Source of the DNA: Paracoccaceae bacterium
Lineage (GTDB): Bacteria > Pseudomonadota > Alphaproteobacteria > Rhodobacterales > Rhodobacteraceae
Reading direction: 5' to 3'
NCBI GenBank assembly: GCA_947504705.1
Contig: CANNIA010000001.1
Coordinates: 124,001-188,000 of the forward strand
DNA length: 64,000 nt
Under the pieces are notes generated by a model, which ran no database searches, was not told where the DNA came from, and saw nothing but the letters and a program-made list of their open reading frames with translations. Position 1 is the first letter of the stretch, and every line of letters begins with the position of its first letter. This document shows, piece after piece, positions 56,775-62,702 of this stretch. The position numbers and the translations under genes are program-made.

Positions 56775-57443
56775 ATGGAAATCTTTACCTATGAGGGCTT
56801 TGTCGCCCTGATGCAGGTCATCGGCATCGATCTGGTTCTGGCCGGAGACAATGCCATCGTCATCGGCCTTGCTGCCGCAGGCCTGCCCAAGGACCTGCGC
56901 GCCAAGGCGATTCTGGTCGGGATCGGGGCTGCGACAGTGATGCGCATTGGCTTTGCGCTGATCACCACCCAGCTTCTGGCCATCGTCGGACTGCTCTTGG
57001 CCGGTGGCATCCTTTTGCTTTGGGTCTGCTGGAAGATGTGGCAGGAACTGCGCGCTGGTGCCCATGAGCATGACATCGAGGCGATGGAAGCGCTGGCCAA
57101 TCAGGACATCGACGCCGATGGTGCGATTGCCGACGACGCGCCGAAAAAGACCTTTGCCCAGGCCGCCTGGCAGATCGTGATCGCCGACGTGTCGATGAGC
57201 CTTGATAACGTGCTGGCCGTGGCGGGTGCTGCCAAGGATCACCCGACAGTGCTGATCATCGGGCTTGTCCTGTCGATCGCCATGATGGGCCTTGCGGCAA
57301 GTTACATTGCCAATCTGCTGAACAAGTTCCGCTGGATCGCCTATATCGGCCTCTTGATCATCCTTTACGTCGCCTTGAAGATGATGTGGGAAGGCTGGCA
57401 CGAGATCGAACCGTGGTTCTGGGCCTGGTGGGCGGGGGCATGA
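56775..57443 (+). CDS. TerC-family membrane protein
   Basis: 222 residues, about seven hydrophobic helices; IGIDLVLAGDNAIVIGLAAA and IVIADVSMSLDNVLAVAGAA carry the two conserved Asp-containing GDN/LDN motifs of TerC. TerC (YjbE/YceF) proteins help metalate exported proteins, probably with manganese. ATGA overlap with the next gene. Confidence 0.88.
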   Translation: MEIFTYEGFVALMQVIGIDLVLAGDNAIVIGLAAAGLPKDLRAKAILVGIGAATVMRIGFALITTQLLAIVGLLLAGGILLLWVCWKMWQELRAGAHEHDIEAMEALANQDIDADGAIADDAPKKTFAQAAWQIVIADVSMSLDNVLAVAGAAKDHPTVLIIGLVLSIAMMGLAASYIANLLNKFRWIAYIGLLIILYVALKMMWEGWHEIEPWFWAWWAGA

Positions 57444-57766
57444 TCCTTTACGGCATTTCCACCTGCGACACCTGCAAGAAGGCGCTGAAGGCGCTGGAAC
57501 TCGCGGGGCGTGAGGTAACGTTCCGCGATATTCGGGCCGACCCGCTGGAGCAGGCCGAGATCGACCGGATCGTGCAGGAATTCGGCTCGCGGGCGGTGAA
57601 CACGCAGTCGACCACCTACCGCAGCTTCAATGATTTCCTCAAAGCGTCCGAGCCCGAGGCTCAGATCGCCGCTCAGCCGGCCGTCATGAAACGACCGGTG
57701 ATCCAGGATGGGGATCGCTGGTATCTAGGCTGGGACGCTGCTGTCGAAGCCGCGCTGACTGCTTAA
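57440..57766 (+). CDS. ArsC/Spx-family protein
   Basis: 108 residues from ATG 57440, overlapping the terC stop. ILYGISTCDTCKKALKALEL has the C9-x-x-C12 motif; FRDIRADPLEQAEIDRIVQE and MKRPVIQDGDRWYLGWD complete the Spx/ArsC-like fold (YffB type). Arsenate reductase or regulator role not distinguishable. Confidence 0.82.
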   Translation: MILYGISTCDTCKKALKALELAGREVTFRDIRADPLEQAEIDRIVQEFGSRAVNTQSTTYRSFNDFLKASEPEAQIAAQPAVMKRPVIQDGDRWYLGWDAAVEAALTA

Positions 57767-57969
57767 AGCAGACGCAGGTCGCCAGCCGATTCCTTGCCGT
57801 CGCGGCCCGCCTGAAGCTCGAAGCCGATCTTCTGGTTGTCGCTCAGGCCCTTAAGCCCGGCACGTTCGACCGCCGAGATATGGACGAAAACATCCTTGCC
57901 GCCATCATCGGGGGCAATGAACCCGTAACCCTTGGTAGAGTTGAACCACTTCACGGTGCCAGTTGGCAT
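57763..57969 (-). CDS. cold-shock domain protein
   Basis: 68 residues from ATG 57969 (AGGAG upstream); the longer open frame begins in the leader. MPTGTVKWFNSTKGYGFIAP and DVFVHISAVERAGLKGLSDN contain RNP1 (KGYGFI) and RNP2 (VFVHI). Nucleic-acid chaperone; a long leader to ~58080 may be temperature-responsive, as in other csp genes. Confidence 0.92.
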   Translation of the reverse strand: MPTGTVKWFNSTKGYGFIAPDDGGKDVFVHISAVERAGLKGLSDNQKIGFELQAGRDGKESAGDLRLL

Positions 57970-58106
57970 GCCGCTTCTCCTATCAGAACCCCCCCGAGGC
58001 GACATTGCCGCGGGTCGTGCCATCAGCACTTCCAGGGCCTTCGTTCCGAGAGGCGGTCAGGAAATCTGCGTCACTGCCGATAATGATGCCTAGGATTGAA
58101 TGAAAA

Positions 58107-58646
58107 TCAAGCCGGAAGGCGGGGTGAGGCCTGGTGGAGGATCCGATCCACCGACAACGGGCCCGCCCCTTTCAAGGCAAGCACAACCAGAAGCAGAACC
58201 CAGAACGCCCGCTGGTCCAGAATCAACCCGTCCGACGCCCGGTCAAACCACGCCCCGGCCTCGACCCCGTGGCCGTAGACATCGGTCAGACTTTGCACCG
58301 CAACAAAGCCCATCATCCCAAGCGCGGCCAGTCGGGTGAAAAGCCCCAGCACGATCAGCACCGGCAGCGCAAATTCCGCCCATGCCCCGGCAACGGCCAC
58401 AGCCCAATGCCACAGACCCAACTGGCTTTCGTCGAAGCCAACCGCCTCGAAGGCGCGCGGGAATATCTGACCATACGCCCCGGCTGTCGGGCTGAACGGC
58501 CCGACAAGCTTGGTCGCAGCCGAGGCCCAGAAATAGCCCAGCAGCACCCCGGCGAAGACCAGCCGCGCTAGGCAGGGCAACAGCCAGTCGCTCTGGCGGT
58601 CGGCAAGACGCGCGGCGCGGTCGTAAAGGGCAAGAAGACGGGTCAT
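58107..58646 (-). CDS. DoxX-family membrane protein
   Basis: 179 residues, four hydrophobic helices; WLLPCLARLVFAGVLLGYFW, FALPVLIVLGLFTRLAALGM fit DoxX. Often the last gene of DUF692/DUF2063 operons, where its role is thought to be in the membrane part of the system. ATGA overlap with the DUF2063 gene. Confidence 0.85.
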   Translation of the reverse strand: MTRLLALYDRAARLADRQSDWLLPCLARLVFAGVLLGYFWASAATKLVGPFSPTAGAYGQIFPRAFEAVGFDESQLGLWHWAVAVAGAWAEFALPVLIVLGLFTRLAALGMMGFVAVQSLTDVYGHGVEAGAWFDRASDGLILDQRAFWVLLLVVLALKGAGPLSVDRILHQASPRLPA

Positions 58647-59374
58647 TTCGTCACTCCGACAATAGCGCGGCCCGCGATCAGCAAGCCCAGGATCGCGGCC
58701 AGATCAATCGGCCCCGTGGCAAGGTCCAGGCTTTCGCCCAGCGTCTTTCCGGCCAAAAGCCCGGCGATGAATTCCGCCCCACCCGTCGGCAAAAGATGCG
58801 GCGCTGGGTCAAACTCCGGGCGCAGGATCACCACGTCCTCGGCCGCCGGCTTCGGGGCCGGACCTCCCGCATGATTGGCCGCAAAGATCGAGGCCACCGG
58901 CCAGCGCGACCGCACCAGCCGCAGGCTGGGGGCCAGCGTCAACCGCAGCGCGGCGATGTCCTGGCCCAGAAGCTGCTGGAAGTCGGCTTCCGGCAAAGGC
59001 GCACTGTCGGCCGAATGGTAGCTTTCCCGCAAAGCCTGATCGACTCGGGCGATGTCCGCCAGGTAGCCCAGATGGGCAACCGGCTGAAATTCCTCTAGAA
59101 AACTCGGAAGATCGCCGCCATACAGCATCAAGATCCGCGACTTGGGCGGATGCGCGCGCAGGAAGACCAGCGCCATCGCAGAGAAGAACTCCTCGCCCAA
59201 AAGCTTCACCAAAGTCGGGAAACCAGCCTTCAGCGCGTCGATCAGTGAGCTTGCGACAGTGTTGCGATAAACAGCAAACCGCTTCGGCGCGGGGCGGCCC
59301 AGCGGGTCGATGATCCCACGCGGCAGGGGCGCGTCGGGGTCCAGAAGGGCCGCGGCAAAGAGACTCTGGTTCAT
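58643..59374 (-). CDS. DUF2063 protein (BufC/HvfC-like partner)
   Basis: 243 residues. [40 protein letters not shown] are the DUF2063 core (HvfC). In bufferin-type systems the DUF2063 protein binds the precursor and works with the DUF692 enzyme. ATGA overlaps on both sides show tight coupling. Confidence 0.9.
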
Positions 59375-60216
59375 CCCACCGGCTCCAGAATCCGCGCCGC
59401 GCGTGCAGCTTCGGCGGCCAGTTCCGGCCAGTCCGGCACATCATTGTCCCATTCGATCAACGTCGGCAGTGGCCCGGCGCGGTCGATCACCCGGGCGTAA
59501 AGCTCCCAGACCGGACCCAACACTTCGGCCCCGTGACTGTCGATCAACAGCCGCTTGCCGTGATCGTCGCTGTCTTCATGATGGCCGCCCAGATGCACTT
59601 CGCCTACCAGATGCAGCGGGAAGGCGTCAAGATAGCCGACCGGATCGTAATTCTGGTTGGTGCCCGAGACATAGACGTTGTTCACATCCAGCAGCAGGCC
59701 GCAGCCGGTGCGCCTGGCAACCTCGGACAGGAAATCAACCTCACCCATCGCGGTCTCGGCGAATGCGATATAGGTCGAGGGGTTTTCCAGCAGCATCCGT
59801 CGCCCCAGAGCCTCTTGCACCTCGTCGATATGATCGGCCACCCGGGCCAAAGTCACCATCGTATAGGGCACCGGCAACAGGTCGTTCAGAAAGGCCCCGT
59901 CATGGGTCGACCAGGCCAGATGTTCGGAAAAGCTGGCCGGGTTCAGCCAGTCGCAAAGGTGGCGCAGGCGCTGCAGATGGTCGCGGTCCAGCGGGCCTTC
60001 GCCACCAATCGAAAGCCCCACGCCATGGACCGAAATCGGAAACCGCTCAACCAGATGGCGAAGTTGAGCCAGGGGCCGTCCGCCCGCACCCATGTAATTC
60101 TCGGCATGAATCTCCAGCCAGCCCACCGGGTTGGCATTGTCGAGAATCGCCTGAAAGTGCTGCGGCTTGTAACCGACGCCGGGTTTTGCGGGCAGGCCTT
60201 GCGCGTAATCGAACAT
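59371..60216 (-). CDS. DUF692 multinuclear non-heme iron enzyme (BufB/HvfB-like)
   Basis: 281 residues from ATG 60216 (AAGGGGAATGAG upstream). [73 protein letters not shown] and [11 protein letters not shown] give the TIM-barrel ligands for two or three irons, as in MbnB. In known systems it converts precursor cysteines to thiooxazole/oxazolone groups. Confidence 0.92.
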
Positions 60217-60233
60217 CTCATTCCCCTTGATAG

Positions 60234-60255
60234 CCCCCGGCCCGAAGGCCGGGGG
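60234..60255 (-). promoter_or_regulatory. stable UUCG hairpin between bufA- and bufB-like genes
   Basis: Minus strand: CCCCCGGCC-TTCG-GGCCGGGGG, a 9-bp GC stem with cUUCGg tetraloop, in the 47-nt gap after the precursor stop. No T-tract follows, so it more likely protects the upstream transcript or modulates downstream expression than ends transcription. Confidence 0.65.
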
Positions 60256-60263
60256 TCGCTGCC

Positions 60264-60572
60264 TCATGCTTCCGGCAGATCGCGCATCAGCTCTTCCATC
60301 GCGCCGTTGCGCATCATGCCAGCGCCGTCCGCCGGCAGTTCCATGGTCATGCAGGTGCCAGCCGGAACGAACTTCCACGAGTTGCCCTGAAAGTCGACCT
60401 TCGAGGTCCCCGCACAGGTGGTGCCTTCGCCAGCCTTGCAGTCGTTCTGACCCGCAAGCGCCACGCCGAAGCACTTTTCCATGGCATCCTCAGCCGAGGC
60501 GACCGTGGCAACCGAGCAAAGCGCCGCAGTCAGGGCACCGGCGATGATCAGAGATTTGGATTGAATGGACAT
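60264..60572 (-). CDS. DUF2282 precursor peptide, bufferin-1-like (BufA1/HvfA)
   Basis: 102 residues from ATG 60572 (AGGGGAAG upstream). Signal peptide [20 protein letters not shown], cleavage near 27. The mature chain has four Cys (34, 45, 53, 74) in the DUF2282 order: [46 protein letters not shown]2282 proteins are RiPP precursors modified by the DUF692 enzyme and exported to bind copper. Confidence 0.9.
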
Positions 60573-60701
60573 GAGAACTTCCCCTTTGGTTTTTTGATCG
60601 CTGTGTTGCGATGAGGGAAGGTTTAAGGGGAAGCGACGCTCACAAGACAGGCACGGGCGCGTGAAGCACGGCGACGTGACCCTGCATTTTGCGGGCACAG
60701 A

Positions 60702-60737
60702 AATGAAAAGCCCCGCATCGCTGCGGGGCTTTTCATT
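60702..60737 (-). terminator. intrinsic terminator of thrS
   Basis: Perfect 16-bp stem with TCGC loop: arms 60702-60717 and 60722-60737 (AATGAAAAGCCCCGCA and its complement). Transcribed from thrS (stop at 60756-60758), the GC stem is followed by TTTTCATT. It also insulates the bufferin-type operon downstream. Confidence 0.85.
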
Positions 60738-60755
60738 CTTTATCAGCGCTTTGGC

Positions 60756-62702
60756 TTAGTTGCCCGACGGGGGCAGCGCCTCAAACCCAAAGCTTGCTAT
60801 CGCCGCATCAAGCGAGATTGTTTCAGTGCGCGTCTCGCCCAGACGGCGAACTGAAACAGTTCTCGCCTCGACCTCTTGCATGCCAATCGCAAGGATCACG
60901 GGAACTTTTCCAACCGAGTGCTCGCGGACCTTGTAGTTGATCTTTTCGTTGCGCGTATCCGCCTCGGCCCGCACGCCCACCTTGCGCAAGCTTGCCACAA
61001 CTTCATTCACGAACGGATCGGCATCCGACACAATCGAGGCCACGACAACCTGCCGCGGGGCCAGCCAGAACGGCAGACGCCCGGCATAGTTCTCCAGCAG
61101 TATGCCGATAAAGCGCTCGAACGAACCCAGGATCGCGCGGTGCAGCATATAGGGGCGGTGCTTCATCCCATCTTCGGCCACATATTCCGCACCCAGCCGC
61201 GTCGGCAGGTTTGGGTCGACCTGAAACGTCCCGCACTGCCATTTGCGGCCAATCGCATCAGTCAGCTTAAAGTCAAGCTTCGGGCCGTAGAAAGCGCCTT
61301 CGCCGGGGTCGATTTCATAGGGGACGCCAGCGGCCTTGACGGCCGCCTCCAACATACCCTCGACCTTGTCCCAAGTCTCATCCGAACCGATCCGCACGTC
61401 TGGACGCGTCGAGAACTTGATCTCGAACCCGTCAAATCCCAGGTCCTTGTAGACCGACGCCAGCAGCTTGATGAAGCTTTCGCATTCGGCTCCGATCTGA
61501 TCCTCGGTGCAGAAGATATGCGCGTCGTCCTGGGTAAAGCCGCGCACCCGCATCAGCCCGTGCATCGACCCGGAGGATTCATAACGGTGGCAGGACCCGA
61601 ATTCCGCCAGCCGCAGCGGCAGATCGCGGTAAGACTTCAGACCCTGGTTGAAGACCTGCACATGGCAGGGGCAGTTCATCGGCTTCAGCGCGTTGATGCG
61701 CTTTTCCTTGGCACCGTCCTCGTCCACTTCGACGATGAACATGTTCTCGCGGTAGGCCTCCCAGTGGCCGGACTTCTCCCACAACACCCGGTCCACGACC
61801 TGCGGCGTCTTGATTTCCTTGTAGCCCGCGCTGCGCAGCCGTCCGCGCATGTAATCCTCAAGCTGGCGATAGATCGTCCAGCCGTTCGGGTGCCAGAAGA
61901 CCATGCCGGGCGCTTCTTCCTGCAGATGGAACAGCTCCATCTCTTTGCCAAGCTTGCGGTGGTCGCGCTTGGCGGCCTCCTCCAGCATGGTCAGATGCGC
62001 CTTCAGGTCATCGCGGTTACGGAAGGCCACACCATAGATGCGTTGCAGCATGGGCCGCGAGGCATCGCCCAGCCAATAAGCCCCTGCGACATGCGTCAGC
62101 TTGAACCCATCAGCGGGCACCTGCCCCGTGTGCTGCAGATGAGGCCCCCGGCACAGGTCCTGCCAGTCGCCGTGCCAATACATCCGCAGATCCTCGCCTT
62201 CGGGGATGCGGTCGATCAGCTCCAGCTTGAAGGGCTCGCGGCGGCCCCGGTAGTATTCGACGGCCTTCTCGCGCGGCCACACCTCGGTCTTCACCGGATC
62301 GCGGGCATTGATGATCTGCTTCATCTTCGCTTCGATGGCACCCAGGTCTTCCGGCGTGAACGGCTCCTCGCGGTCAAAGTCGTAGAACCAACCGTAGTCG
62401 CGGACCGGCCCAATGGTGACGCGCACATCCGGCCACAGCTCCTGCACCGCGCGGGCCATGATATGCGCCAGATCGTGGCGGATCAGCTCCAGCGCCGCGG
62501 CCTCGTCCTTCACCGTGTTGAGGCTGATTGTCGCATCCGACGGGATCGGCCAGGCTAGGTCCCAATGCTTGCCGTTCACCTGCGCCGAAATCGCCGCCTT
62601 GGCCAGCGAGGGCGCGATGGATTGCGCCACCTCAAACGGAGTCACACCCGCCGAATATTGGCGCTGGTTGCCGTCAGGAAATGTCAGGGAAATCTGGCCC
62701 AT
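60756..62702 (-). CDS. thrS: threonyl-tRNA synthetase
   Basis: 648 residues. N-terminal TGS and second-additional domain ([20 protein letters not shown] with the editing HxxxH), class II motifs in the core ([60 protein letters not shown]) and an anticodon domain ([20 protein letters not shown]). Charges tRNA-Thr. Confidence 0.95.

What the first reader, a model, noticed from the sequence alone, without database searches (positions are those of the whole stretch)
58107..60572. Bufferin-type operon: DUF2282 precursor, DUF692 enzyme, DUF2063 partner, DoxX
Seen: a signal-peptide-bearing four-Cys peptide, an MNIO (DUF692) enzyme, DUF2063 and DoxX with ATGA overlaps between the last three. Known: such operons make copper-binding RiPPs in which precursor cysteines are modified to thiooxazole or oxazolone groups. 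Inference: this strain makes one. The signature peptide here has Cys34, 45, 53 and 74. The system class is described, but this particular member is not, as far as I know.
Basis: partly seen in the sequence, partly recalled or inferred. Interest (0 to 1): 0.7.

Follow-up and report, generated by a model that had tools for sequence, protein, structure and literature searches.

The report
Ordinary bufferin operon, unassigned upstream boxes
This bacterium carries a standard, already described four-gene set for making a copper-binding modified peptide; the less ordinary parts are DNA signals around the genes, shared by many relatives, whose regulator is unknown.

Summary
Minus strand: bufA (DUF2282, 60264-60572), bufB (MNIO, 59371-60216), bufC (DUF2063, 58643-59374), doxX (58107-58646), with two ATGA overlaps. 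BufB passes NCBI's curated bufferin-maturase cut-off (378.8 vs 310 bits). This is a Buf1 bufferin operon in a Tabrizicola-like Rhodobacteraceae genome, between thrS and a cold-shock gene; in 80 fetched relatives each missing partner gene lies at a contig end. It is a new member of a known kind. Corrections: published work expects modification of the two central Cys only (45, 53), as 5-thiooxazoles, with Cys34-Cys74 as a disulfide. Not described in the sections I saw: (1) a tandem palindrome upstream of bufA (60652-60678), a similar site beating all 60 shuffles in 53 of 71 further relatives; in the genus it alternates with a SigF-type promoter, which goes with the NrsF anti-sigma gene (12 of 12 vs 1 of 11; independence from descent not shown); (2) a bufA-bufB hairpin, recurrent in relatives (40 of 73 gaps with a perfect stem of 8 or more pairs); (3) a precursor tail with RD[LIVM] in 92 of 93 distinct precursors. 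Chemistry, copper response and regulator were not tested.

The parts
60264..60572 (-). bufA: DUF2282 (Buf1) bufferin precursor, 102 aa; signal-peptide-like N-terminus (cleavage expected after Ala27, by eye), four mature Cys (34, 45, 53, 74), C-terminal tail [13 protein letters not shown]
59371..60216 (-). bufB: MNIO-family (formerly DUF692) bufferin maturase, 281 aa from the ATG
58643..59374 (-). bufC: DUF2063 partner protein, 243 aa; ATGA overlap with bufB; confident model (pLDDT 93.6)
58107..58646 (-). doxX-family membrane protein gene, 179 aa; ATGA overlap with bufC
60234..60255 (-). hairpin between bufA and bufB (9 bp stem, UUCG loop), not followed by a T run here
60652..60678 (.). tandem palindrome CACG-N4-CGTG-N3-CACG-N4-CGTG, 80-106 bases before the bufA start; candidate operator
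60706..60733 (.). strong hairpin between the thrS stop and the bufA upstream region, probable end of the thrS transcript
   Evidence: the consensus terminator scan did not list it

Best explanation
A Buf1-type bufferin operon. bufA makes a precursor with an N-terminal export signal; in the cytoplasm BufC (DUF2063) presents it to the iron enzyme BufB, which oxidises the two central cysteines (Cys45, Cys53) to 5-thiooxazoles; the peptide is then exported by Sec, cut after about Ala27, closed by a Cys34-Cys74 disulfide, and chelates excess copper in the periplasm. DoxX is an accessory membrane protein of unknown role. Shown here: the genes, their families, order, conservation and single copy. Inferred from characterised relatives: chemistry, export, copper binding. 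Inferred from comparison: transcription is governed by an unidentified factor at the tandem palindrome rather than by SigF, and the bufA-bufB hairpin gives more precursor than enzyme.
For: Families over curated cut-offs. BufB matches solved DUF692/MNIO chains (3bww 6.2e-42; 8hci, 'DUF692 family protein', 8.7e-19; MbnB 7dz9 1.3e-10). Residues H64, H99, E144, D177, N179, N180, H208, D226, H228, E255 and D257 are kept in at least 98% of 76 full-length sequences, the window's included; D257 aligns with the Asp of 3bww 'ERD', taken here as the counterpart of the FonB-Asp249 base (PMC13097082). A bufA match in 23 of 32 genomes of the genus. Published Caulobacter Buf1 operons are copper-induced and a sigF mutant is copper-sensitive (PMC8224329, passages); the Cupriavidus gig operon, called a bufferin cluster in PMC12452194, is copper-induced and is reported to contribute to copper resistance (PMC10304878, passages).
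Against: No chemical, expression or copper data for this strain. Nine of 32 genus genomes have no bufA match, so it is dispensable (some of these genomes are incomplete). In Microbulbifer a related MNIO-DUF2063 peptide gave only a slight, not robust, protection against copper in E. coli and its genes were not seen expressed (PMC12538549, passages); PMC8224329 cites earlier work in which the Cupriavidus cluster did not affect copper resistance (passage). So a copper role is not automatic. No copper-responsive regulator was identified.
Confidence: 0.9

Rival explanations
1. The operon makes a DUF2282 peptide with the same thiooxazoles but its main task is another metal (gold, silver, cadmium, chromate) or another stress rather than copper.
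For: Caulobacter relatives also respond to chromate and cadmium (PMC8224329 passages; chromium in PMC3511200 passages); gig operons were named for gold induction and doxX is said to suggest other stresses (PMC12452194).
Against: sigF loss in Caulobacter severely affected growth with copper, while the mutant's sensitivity to chromate and cadmium was similar to wild type; copper chelation by Buf1 is the reported activity.
Confidence: 0.12
2. A methanobactin- or oxazolin-like pathway with another precursor logic.
For: Shared MNIO superfamily: hits to TIGR04159 MbnB (49.5 bits) and HvfB NF003818 (242.3 bits).
Against: Both lie below their curated cut-offs (325 and 360) while MNIO_BufB is passed (378.8 vs 310); the precursor is DUF2282 without EGKCG repeats.
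Confidence: 0.03
3. The upstream palindrome is not an operator but chance or a structural repeat.
For: No regulator is known to bind it; at up to 2 mismatches the 11 box-class genomes together have 52 places against 44 for the reversed control pattern; one further perfect array, in G003, lies just before an msrA-like frame and looks like a short tandem repeat.
Against: Kept at a similar distance upstream of bufA: 53 of 71 further relatives beat all 60 shuffles, 51 of those at -140 to -100; 0 of the 4 with a SigF-type promoter do.
Confidence: 0.15

Closest known systems
Buf1 bufferin operon of Caulobacter vibrioides/crescentus (CCNA_03363-03366)
   Same: DUF2282 precursor, MNIO, DUF2063 and DoxX genes together (PMC3511200 and PMC8224329 passages)
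   Different: The Caulobacter operon is under SigF-NrsF with a GTAACC-N16-CGAA promoter (same passages); here no NrsF was found and a tandem palindrome stands upstream; the precursor has a C-terminal tail seen in 2 of 18 precursors sampled outside the family
gigPABT of Cupriavidus metallidurans
   Same: Same kinds of genes in one operon; copper-induced (PMC10304878 passages)
   Different: Divergent from an ECF sigma/anti-sigma pair, not present beside the window's operon
Captophorins (fontiphorin, oxazolin, gonophorin)
   Same: MNIO with DUF2063 partner; 5-thiooxazole chemistry proposed for the whole group, DUF2282 precursors included (PMC13097082)
   Different: Those three precursors have EGKCG repeats; this one is of the DUF2282 group
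Methanobactin (MbnB/MbnC)
   Same: MNIO superfamily, copper
   Different: Partner and precursor differ; MbnB model far below its cut-off

Membership tests
Buf1 bufferin operon | DUF2282 precursor | tested here: met
   PF10048 86.5 bits vs 22.4
Buf1 bufferin operon | Four conserved Cys in the mature part | tested here: met
   Four Cys after residue 22 in 93 of 93 distinct precursors, the window's included
Buf1 bufferin operon | Sec signal peptide | not testable with these tools
   No predictor on hand; by eye K6, hydrophobic stretch, ASA before residue 28
Buf1 bufferin operon | MNIO of the BufB type | tested here: met
   NF050167 MNIO_BufB 378.8 bits vs 310
Buf1 bufferin operon | DUF2063 partner (PME type 1) | tested here: met
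   PF09836 87.4 bits vs 27.2
Buf1 bufferin operon | RRE-type domain fused to DUF2063 | tested here: inconclusive
   Confident model: helices to about residue 134, then alpha/beta 144-242; no sequence match to solved chains; fold comparison could not be run
Buf1 bufferin operon | DoxX gene in the operon | tested here: met
   PF07681 36.0 bits vs 23.6; ATGA overlap
Buf1 bufferin operon | 5-thiooxazoles on the central Cys | not testable with these tools
   Needs mass spectrometry / NMR
Buf1 bufferin operon | Copper induction and copper tolerance | not testable with these tools
   Needs expression and deletion data
SigF-NrsF-controlled Buf1 operon (optional subtype) | NrsF anti-sigma gene and GTAACC-N16-CGAA-type promoter | tested here: not met
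   No NrsF match in the genome; no such promoter in the 300 bases upstream
Oxazolin/HvfABC | HvfB-type MNIO | tested here: not met
   NF003818 242.3 bits vs 360
Methanobactin | MbnB-type MNIO | tested here: not met
   TIGR04159 49.5 bits vs 325

The most novel reading that the evidence does not exclude
Rhodobacteraceae bufferin operons are run by a dedicated, still unnamed transcription factor that binds a tandem palindrome (consensus T.ACGc...cGTGa..CACGggc.cGTGA) upstream of bufA. In this genus the operon has switched, apparently more than once, between that control and the SigF-NrsF sigma-factor control known from Caulobacter, mostly while staying beside thrS.
Probability: 0.5. Interest if true: 0.45.

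Novelty: new member of a known kind. Interest (0 to 1): 0.28.

Why it matters
As a bufferin operon it adds one more example of a widespread copper-buffering system. What could matter is regulatory: a conserved candidate operator in a large bacterial family gives a handle for finding a new metal-responsive regulator, and the two promoter classes inside one genus make a natural comparison of sigma-factor and operator control of the same operon. The conserved tail of the precursor could be tested for a role in recognition, export or copper binding.

Tried and rejected
Considered and rejected: methanobactin or oxazolin pathway; defence function (no PADLOC match for any of the four proteins); known RNA family in 57000-61500 (0 matches at gathering threshold); sigma-70 consensus promoter in 57700-60900 (0 found). 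A regulator gene kept beside the operon: clustering the frames of 80 loci and reading the 25 clusters listed (those present in 5 or more loci), by eye, showed thrS, the buf genes, the cold-shock gene and an alpha/beta-hydrolase-like frame as the widely kept neighbours; the only regulator-like cluster I recognised is an ArsR-like frame in 9 of 80 loci, too rare to explain the element (not followed up). Further tandem palindromes in the own genome: only the buf site at 0 mismatches, one other place at 2 mismatches.

Led nowhere: the structure model of BufA is poor (mean pLDDT 56.2), so nothing is said about the fold of the peptide or its tail. The hairpin of the window alone is not remarkable for its composition (z -1.51; 15 of 200 shuffles fold as well); only its recurrence is. 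Outside the family the hairpin reached z below -2 in 4 of 9 gaps tested (9 further loci had no MNIO found next to bufA or a gap under 15 bases, own-family loci not counted in either number). The promoter-class/NrsF link is not shown to be independent of descent: only 2 well-supported independent pairs.

Bookkeeping of counts: a first tail count used a faulty pattern (0 of 93) and was replaced. L001, L002 (copies of the window) and L106 (weak second hit, 22 bits) were dropped before counting precursors. Of the 30 loci given, L002 is the window itself; of the other 29 my pattern found no precursor in 5, which are not in the tail counts. In one search one of the 73 gaps (L078) contains a run of N and its z is meaningless. 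The tree holds 20 of the 23 genus loci: L105 was not given, L098 and L104 were lost by my pattern, and L103 is a 58-residue fragment.

Full report
What is there. On the minus strand of 58107-60572 lie four genes in one direction: bufA 60264-60572, bufB 59371-60216, bufC 58643-59374 and doxX 58107-58646. The bufB/bufC and bufC/doxX junctions are ATGA overlaps. All four proteins pass Pfam's gathering scores for DUF2282, MbnB_TglH_ChrH (the MNIO family), DUF2063 and DoxX, and BufB passes NCBIfam's curated cut-off for the 'MNIO family bufferin maturase' (378.8 vs 310 bits) while falling short of those of HvfB, MbnB, ApyH and ChrH. In the whole genome this is the only DUF2282 and the only MNIO match.

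Host and neighbourhood. The nearest named relatives are Tabrizicola and other Rhodobacteraceae: BufB identity 89% to a MAG labelled only Pseudomonadota, 85, 84 and 83% to three MAGs labelled Tabrizicola, and 74% to a fourth. Of 80 named loci fetched with BufB, bufB was found in 80, bufA in 78, bufC in 79 and doxX in 77, and each absence is at a contig end. By a mechanical clustering of reading frames a thrS frame is present in 65 of the 80 loci and a cold-shock protein frame in 33 (lower bounds, since loci are cut at contig ends and frames were chosen by length). In the window thrS is 60756-62702 and the cold-shock gene 57763-57972. So the operon sits at a family-typical place. Within the genus 23 of 32 genomes have a bufA match; the end of thrS was seen upstream in 18 of 22 genus loci looked at (missing in L089, L092, L098 and L104, of which L098 and L104 lie about 4 kb from nrsF instead).

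How it most likely works. From PMC12452194 (abstract, sections 4, 14, 18 and 21, and passages) and PMC13097082 (abstract, sections 5, 10, 13 and 14): MNIO plus DUF2063 partner turn Cys of a signal-peptide-bearing precursor into 5-thiooxazoles; in Buf1 the central Cys are the targets and the outer two form a disulfide; the product chelates copper in the periplasm. Applied here: Cys45 and Cys53 modified, Cys34-Cys74 disulfide. The mature peptide 28-102 would be 7876.46 unmodified, 7868.40 with two losses of 4 H, 7866.39 with the disulfide as well. Residues kept in at least 98% of 76 full-length BufB sequences include H64, H99, E144, D177, N180, H208, D226, H228 and D257; that several of these are the iron ligands is my recall, not a test. 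D257 aligns with the Asp of the 3bww 'ERD' motif, which I take as the counterpart of the FonB-Asp249 base; the next residue is Asn, where FonB has Phe250, and K17-P18 stand where 3bww has two Arg, in line with the loss of conservation the paper reports for DUF2282-type enzymes. BufC gives a confident model (pLDDT 93.6), compatible with DUF2063 plus an RRE-type domain, but the fold comparison could not be run. All chemistry and physiology is inferred.

Upstream element. In the window the 27 bases 60652-60678 read as two palindromes CACG-N4-CGTG with centres 15 bases apart, 80-106 bases before the bufA start. It is the only perfect site in the genome. In the genus, 23 loci fall into two classes: 11 with the tandem element (7 with both palindromes perfect, 4 with one base changed) and 12 with a sequence GTAA-N17/18-CGAA, the form of the Caulobacter SigF promoter (GTAACC-N16-CGAA, PMC3511200 passage). 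The Caulobacter spacing is exact in 3 of the 12 and one base shorter in 9; 5 of the 12 keep a single perfect palindrome further upstream. The anti-sigma gene nrsF is found in 12 of the 12 genomes of the second class and in 1 of 11 of the first (G005), and in 1 of the 9 genomes without bufA; Fisher's p for 12/12 vs 1/11 is 9.6e-6. That number ignores descent: on a bufB tree of 20 of the 23 loci the class changes at least 5 times, but only two independent pairs rest on well-supported branches. In 8 of 14 nrsF loci of the genus the same promoter form stands just upstream of the frame preceding nrsF (in L160 inside an over-long mechanical frame), which I take by position to be sigF; this supports the reading of the motif.

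Further relatives. A weight matrix from seven genus sites was run over the 220 bases upstream of bufA of 71 named loci that are not twins of the genus loci (no contig length in common; a few, such as L054 labelled Tabrizicola, may still belong to the genus). The best site beats all 60 shuffles in 53, and 51 of these start at -140 to -100; in all, 62 of 71 best sites lie there against 15.2 expected for even spread; 0 of the 4 loci with a SigF-type promoter are among the 53; the consensus is T.ACGc...cGTGa..CACGggc.cGTGA. Of the 18 loci without a significant site, 14 have neither that nor a recognised SigF-type promoter. The shuffles were mononucleotide and the loci are related, so this is a strong hint of a family-wide operator, not a proof. 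At up to two mismatches the 11 box-class genomes hold 52 places against 44 for the reversed control, so no wider regulon was detected. The binding protein is unknown; the only regulator-like frame recognised among recurrent neighbours, an ArsR-like one, is in 9 of 80 loci.

Hairpin between bufA and bufB. The 47-base gap folds into a 9 bp stem with a UUCG loop (-23 kcal/mol). Alone it is unremarkable for its composition (z -1.51; 15 of 200 shuffles as good). Across 73 gaps (window plus 72 loci) 40 have a perfect stem of at least 8 pairs, with 39 different 5' arms, and in 38 at most 1 of 100 dinucleotide shuffles does as well; 35 do not. By energy against mononucleotide shuffles 56 of 73 gaps have z below -2, one of them invalid because of N. 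Only 21 of 73 are followed by a T-rich stretch, and the window's is not, so a transcript-stabilising or leaky-stop role that yields more precursor than enzyme is a guess from other operons (search listing only), not a result.

Tail. After the last Cys, 92 of 93 distinct precursors carry a tail with RD[LIVM] near the end; the exception (L105) is the SigF-linked outlier. In the sample of the phylum it is present in 4 of 6 precursors of the own family and 2 of 18 outside it. Of the 16 others, 9 end in GSL followed by T or K and a few residues (counted by eye). The DUF2282 model match ends before the tail (residue 79). Function unknown.

Comparison with print. The bufferin class, its gene set and the sigma/anti-sigma association are published. 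The words promoter, terminator, hairpin and Rhodobacter do not occur in the main text of PMC12452194. Papers holding DUF2282: 9, of which 8 are listed, none on Rhodobacteraceae by title, 0 of the 15 listed papers (of 4,134) hold DUF2282; none of the 5 listed holds Rhodobacter, and none of the 10 listed (of 665) holds DUF692 or DUF2063. The original bufferin paper (reference 31 of PMC12452194) was not read. Most subscription journals are not held, so the element, hairpin and tail may be described elsewhere.

Verdict. The finding is correct and the system is known: a new member of a known kind. The regulatory element is the part worth following.

Noticed in passing
L165 (G003:C22:403396-403452): An array of the same CACG/CGTG palindromes at 15-base steps (three overlapping hits with 0-1 mismatches) just before an msrA-like frame (by eye); may be a short tandem repeat. 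In Caulobacter a methionine-sulfoxide repair system is in the SigF regulon (PMC8224329 passage), so a link is conceivable.
   Followed up: partly
L105 and L149 (G025:C5:50037-51632): A genus member whose bufA is a divergent DUF2282 without the RD[LIVM] tail, close to and divergent from a frame and nrsF: a Caulobacter-like arrangement.
   Followed up: partly
60706-60733: Very strong palindromic hairpin (z -7.2) between thrS and the buf upstream region, not listed by the consensus terminator scan.
   Followed up: partly
56775-57443 and 57416-57766: TerC-family membrane protein and an ArsC-family protein on the plus strand, near the cold-shock gene; not taken as part of the operon.
   Followed up: no
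L106 (G022:C146:6241-6435): A weak second DUF2282-like match (22 bits, E 5e-4) in one genus member; not examined.
   Followed up: no
L031:173-947 and 8 other loci: An ArsR-like regulator frame about 4 kb upstream of bufA, beyond thrS, in 9 of 80 loci.
   Followed up: no
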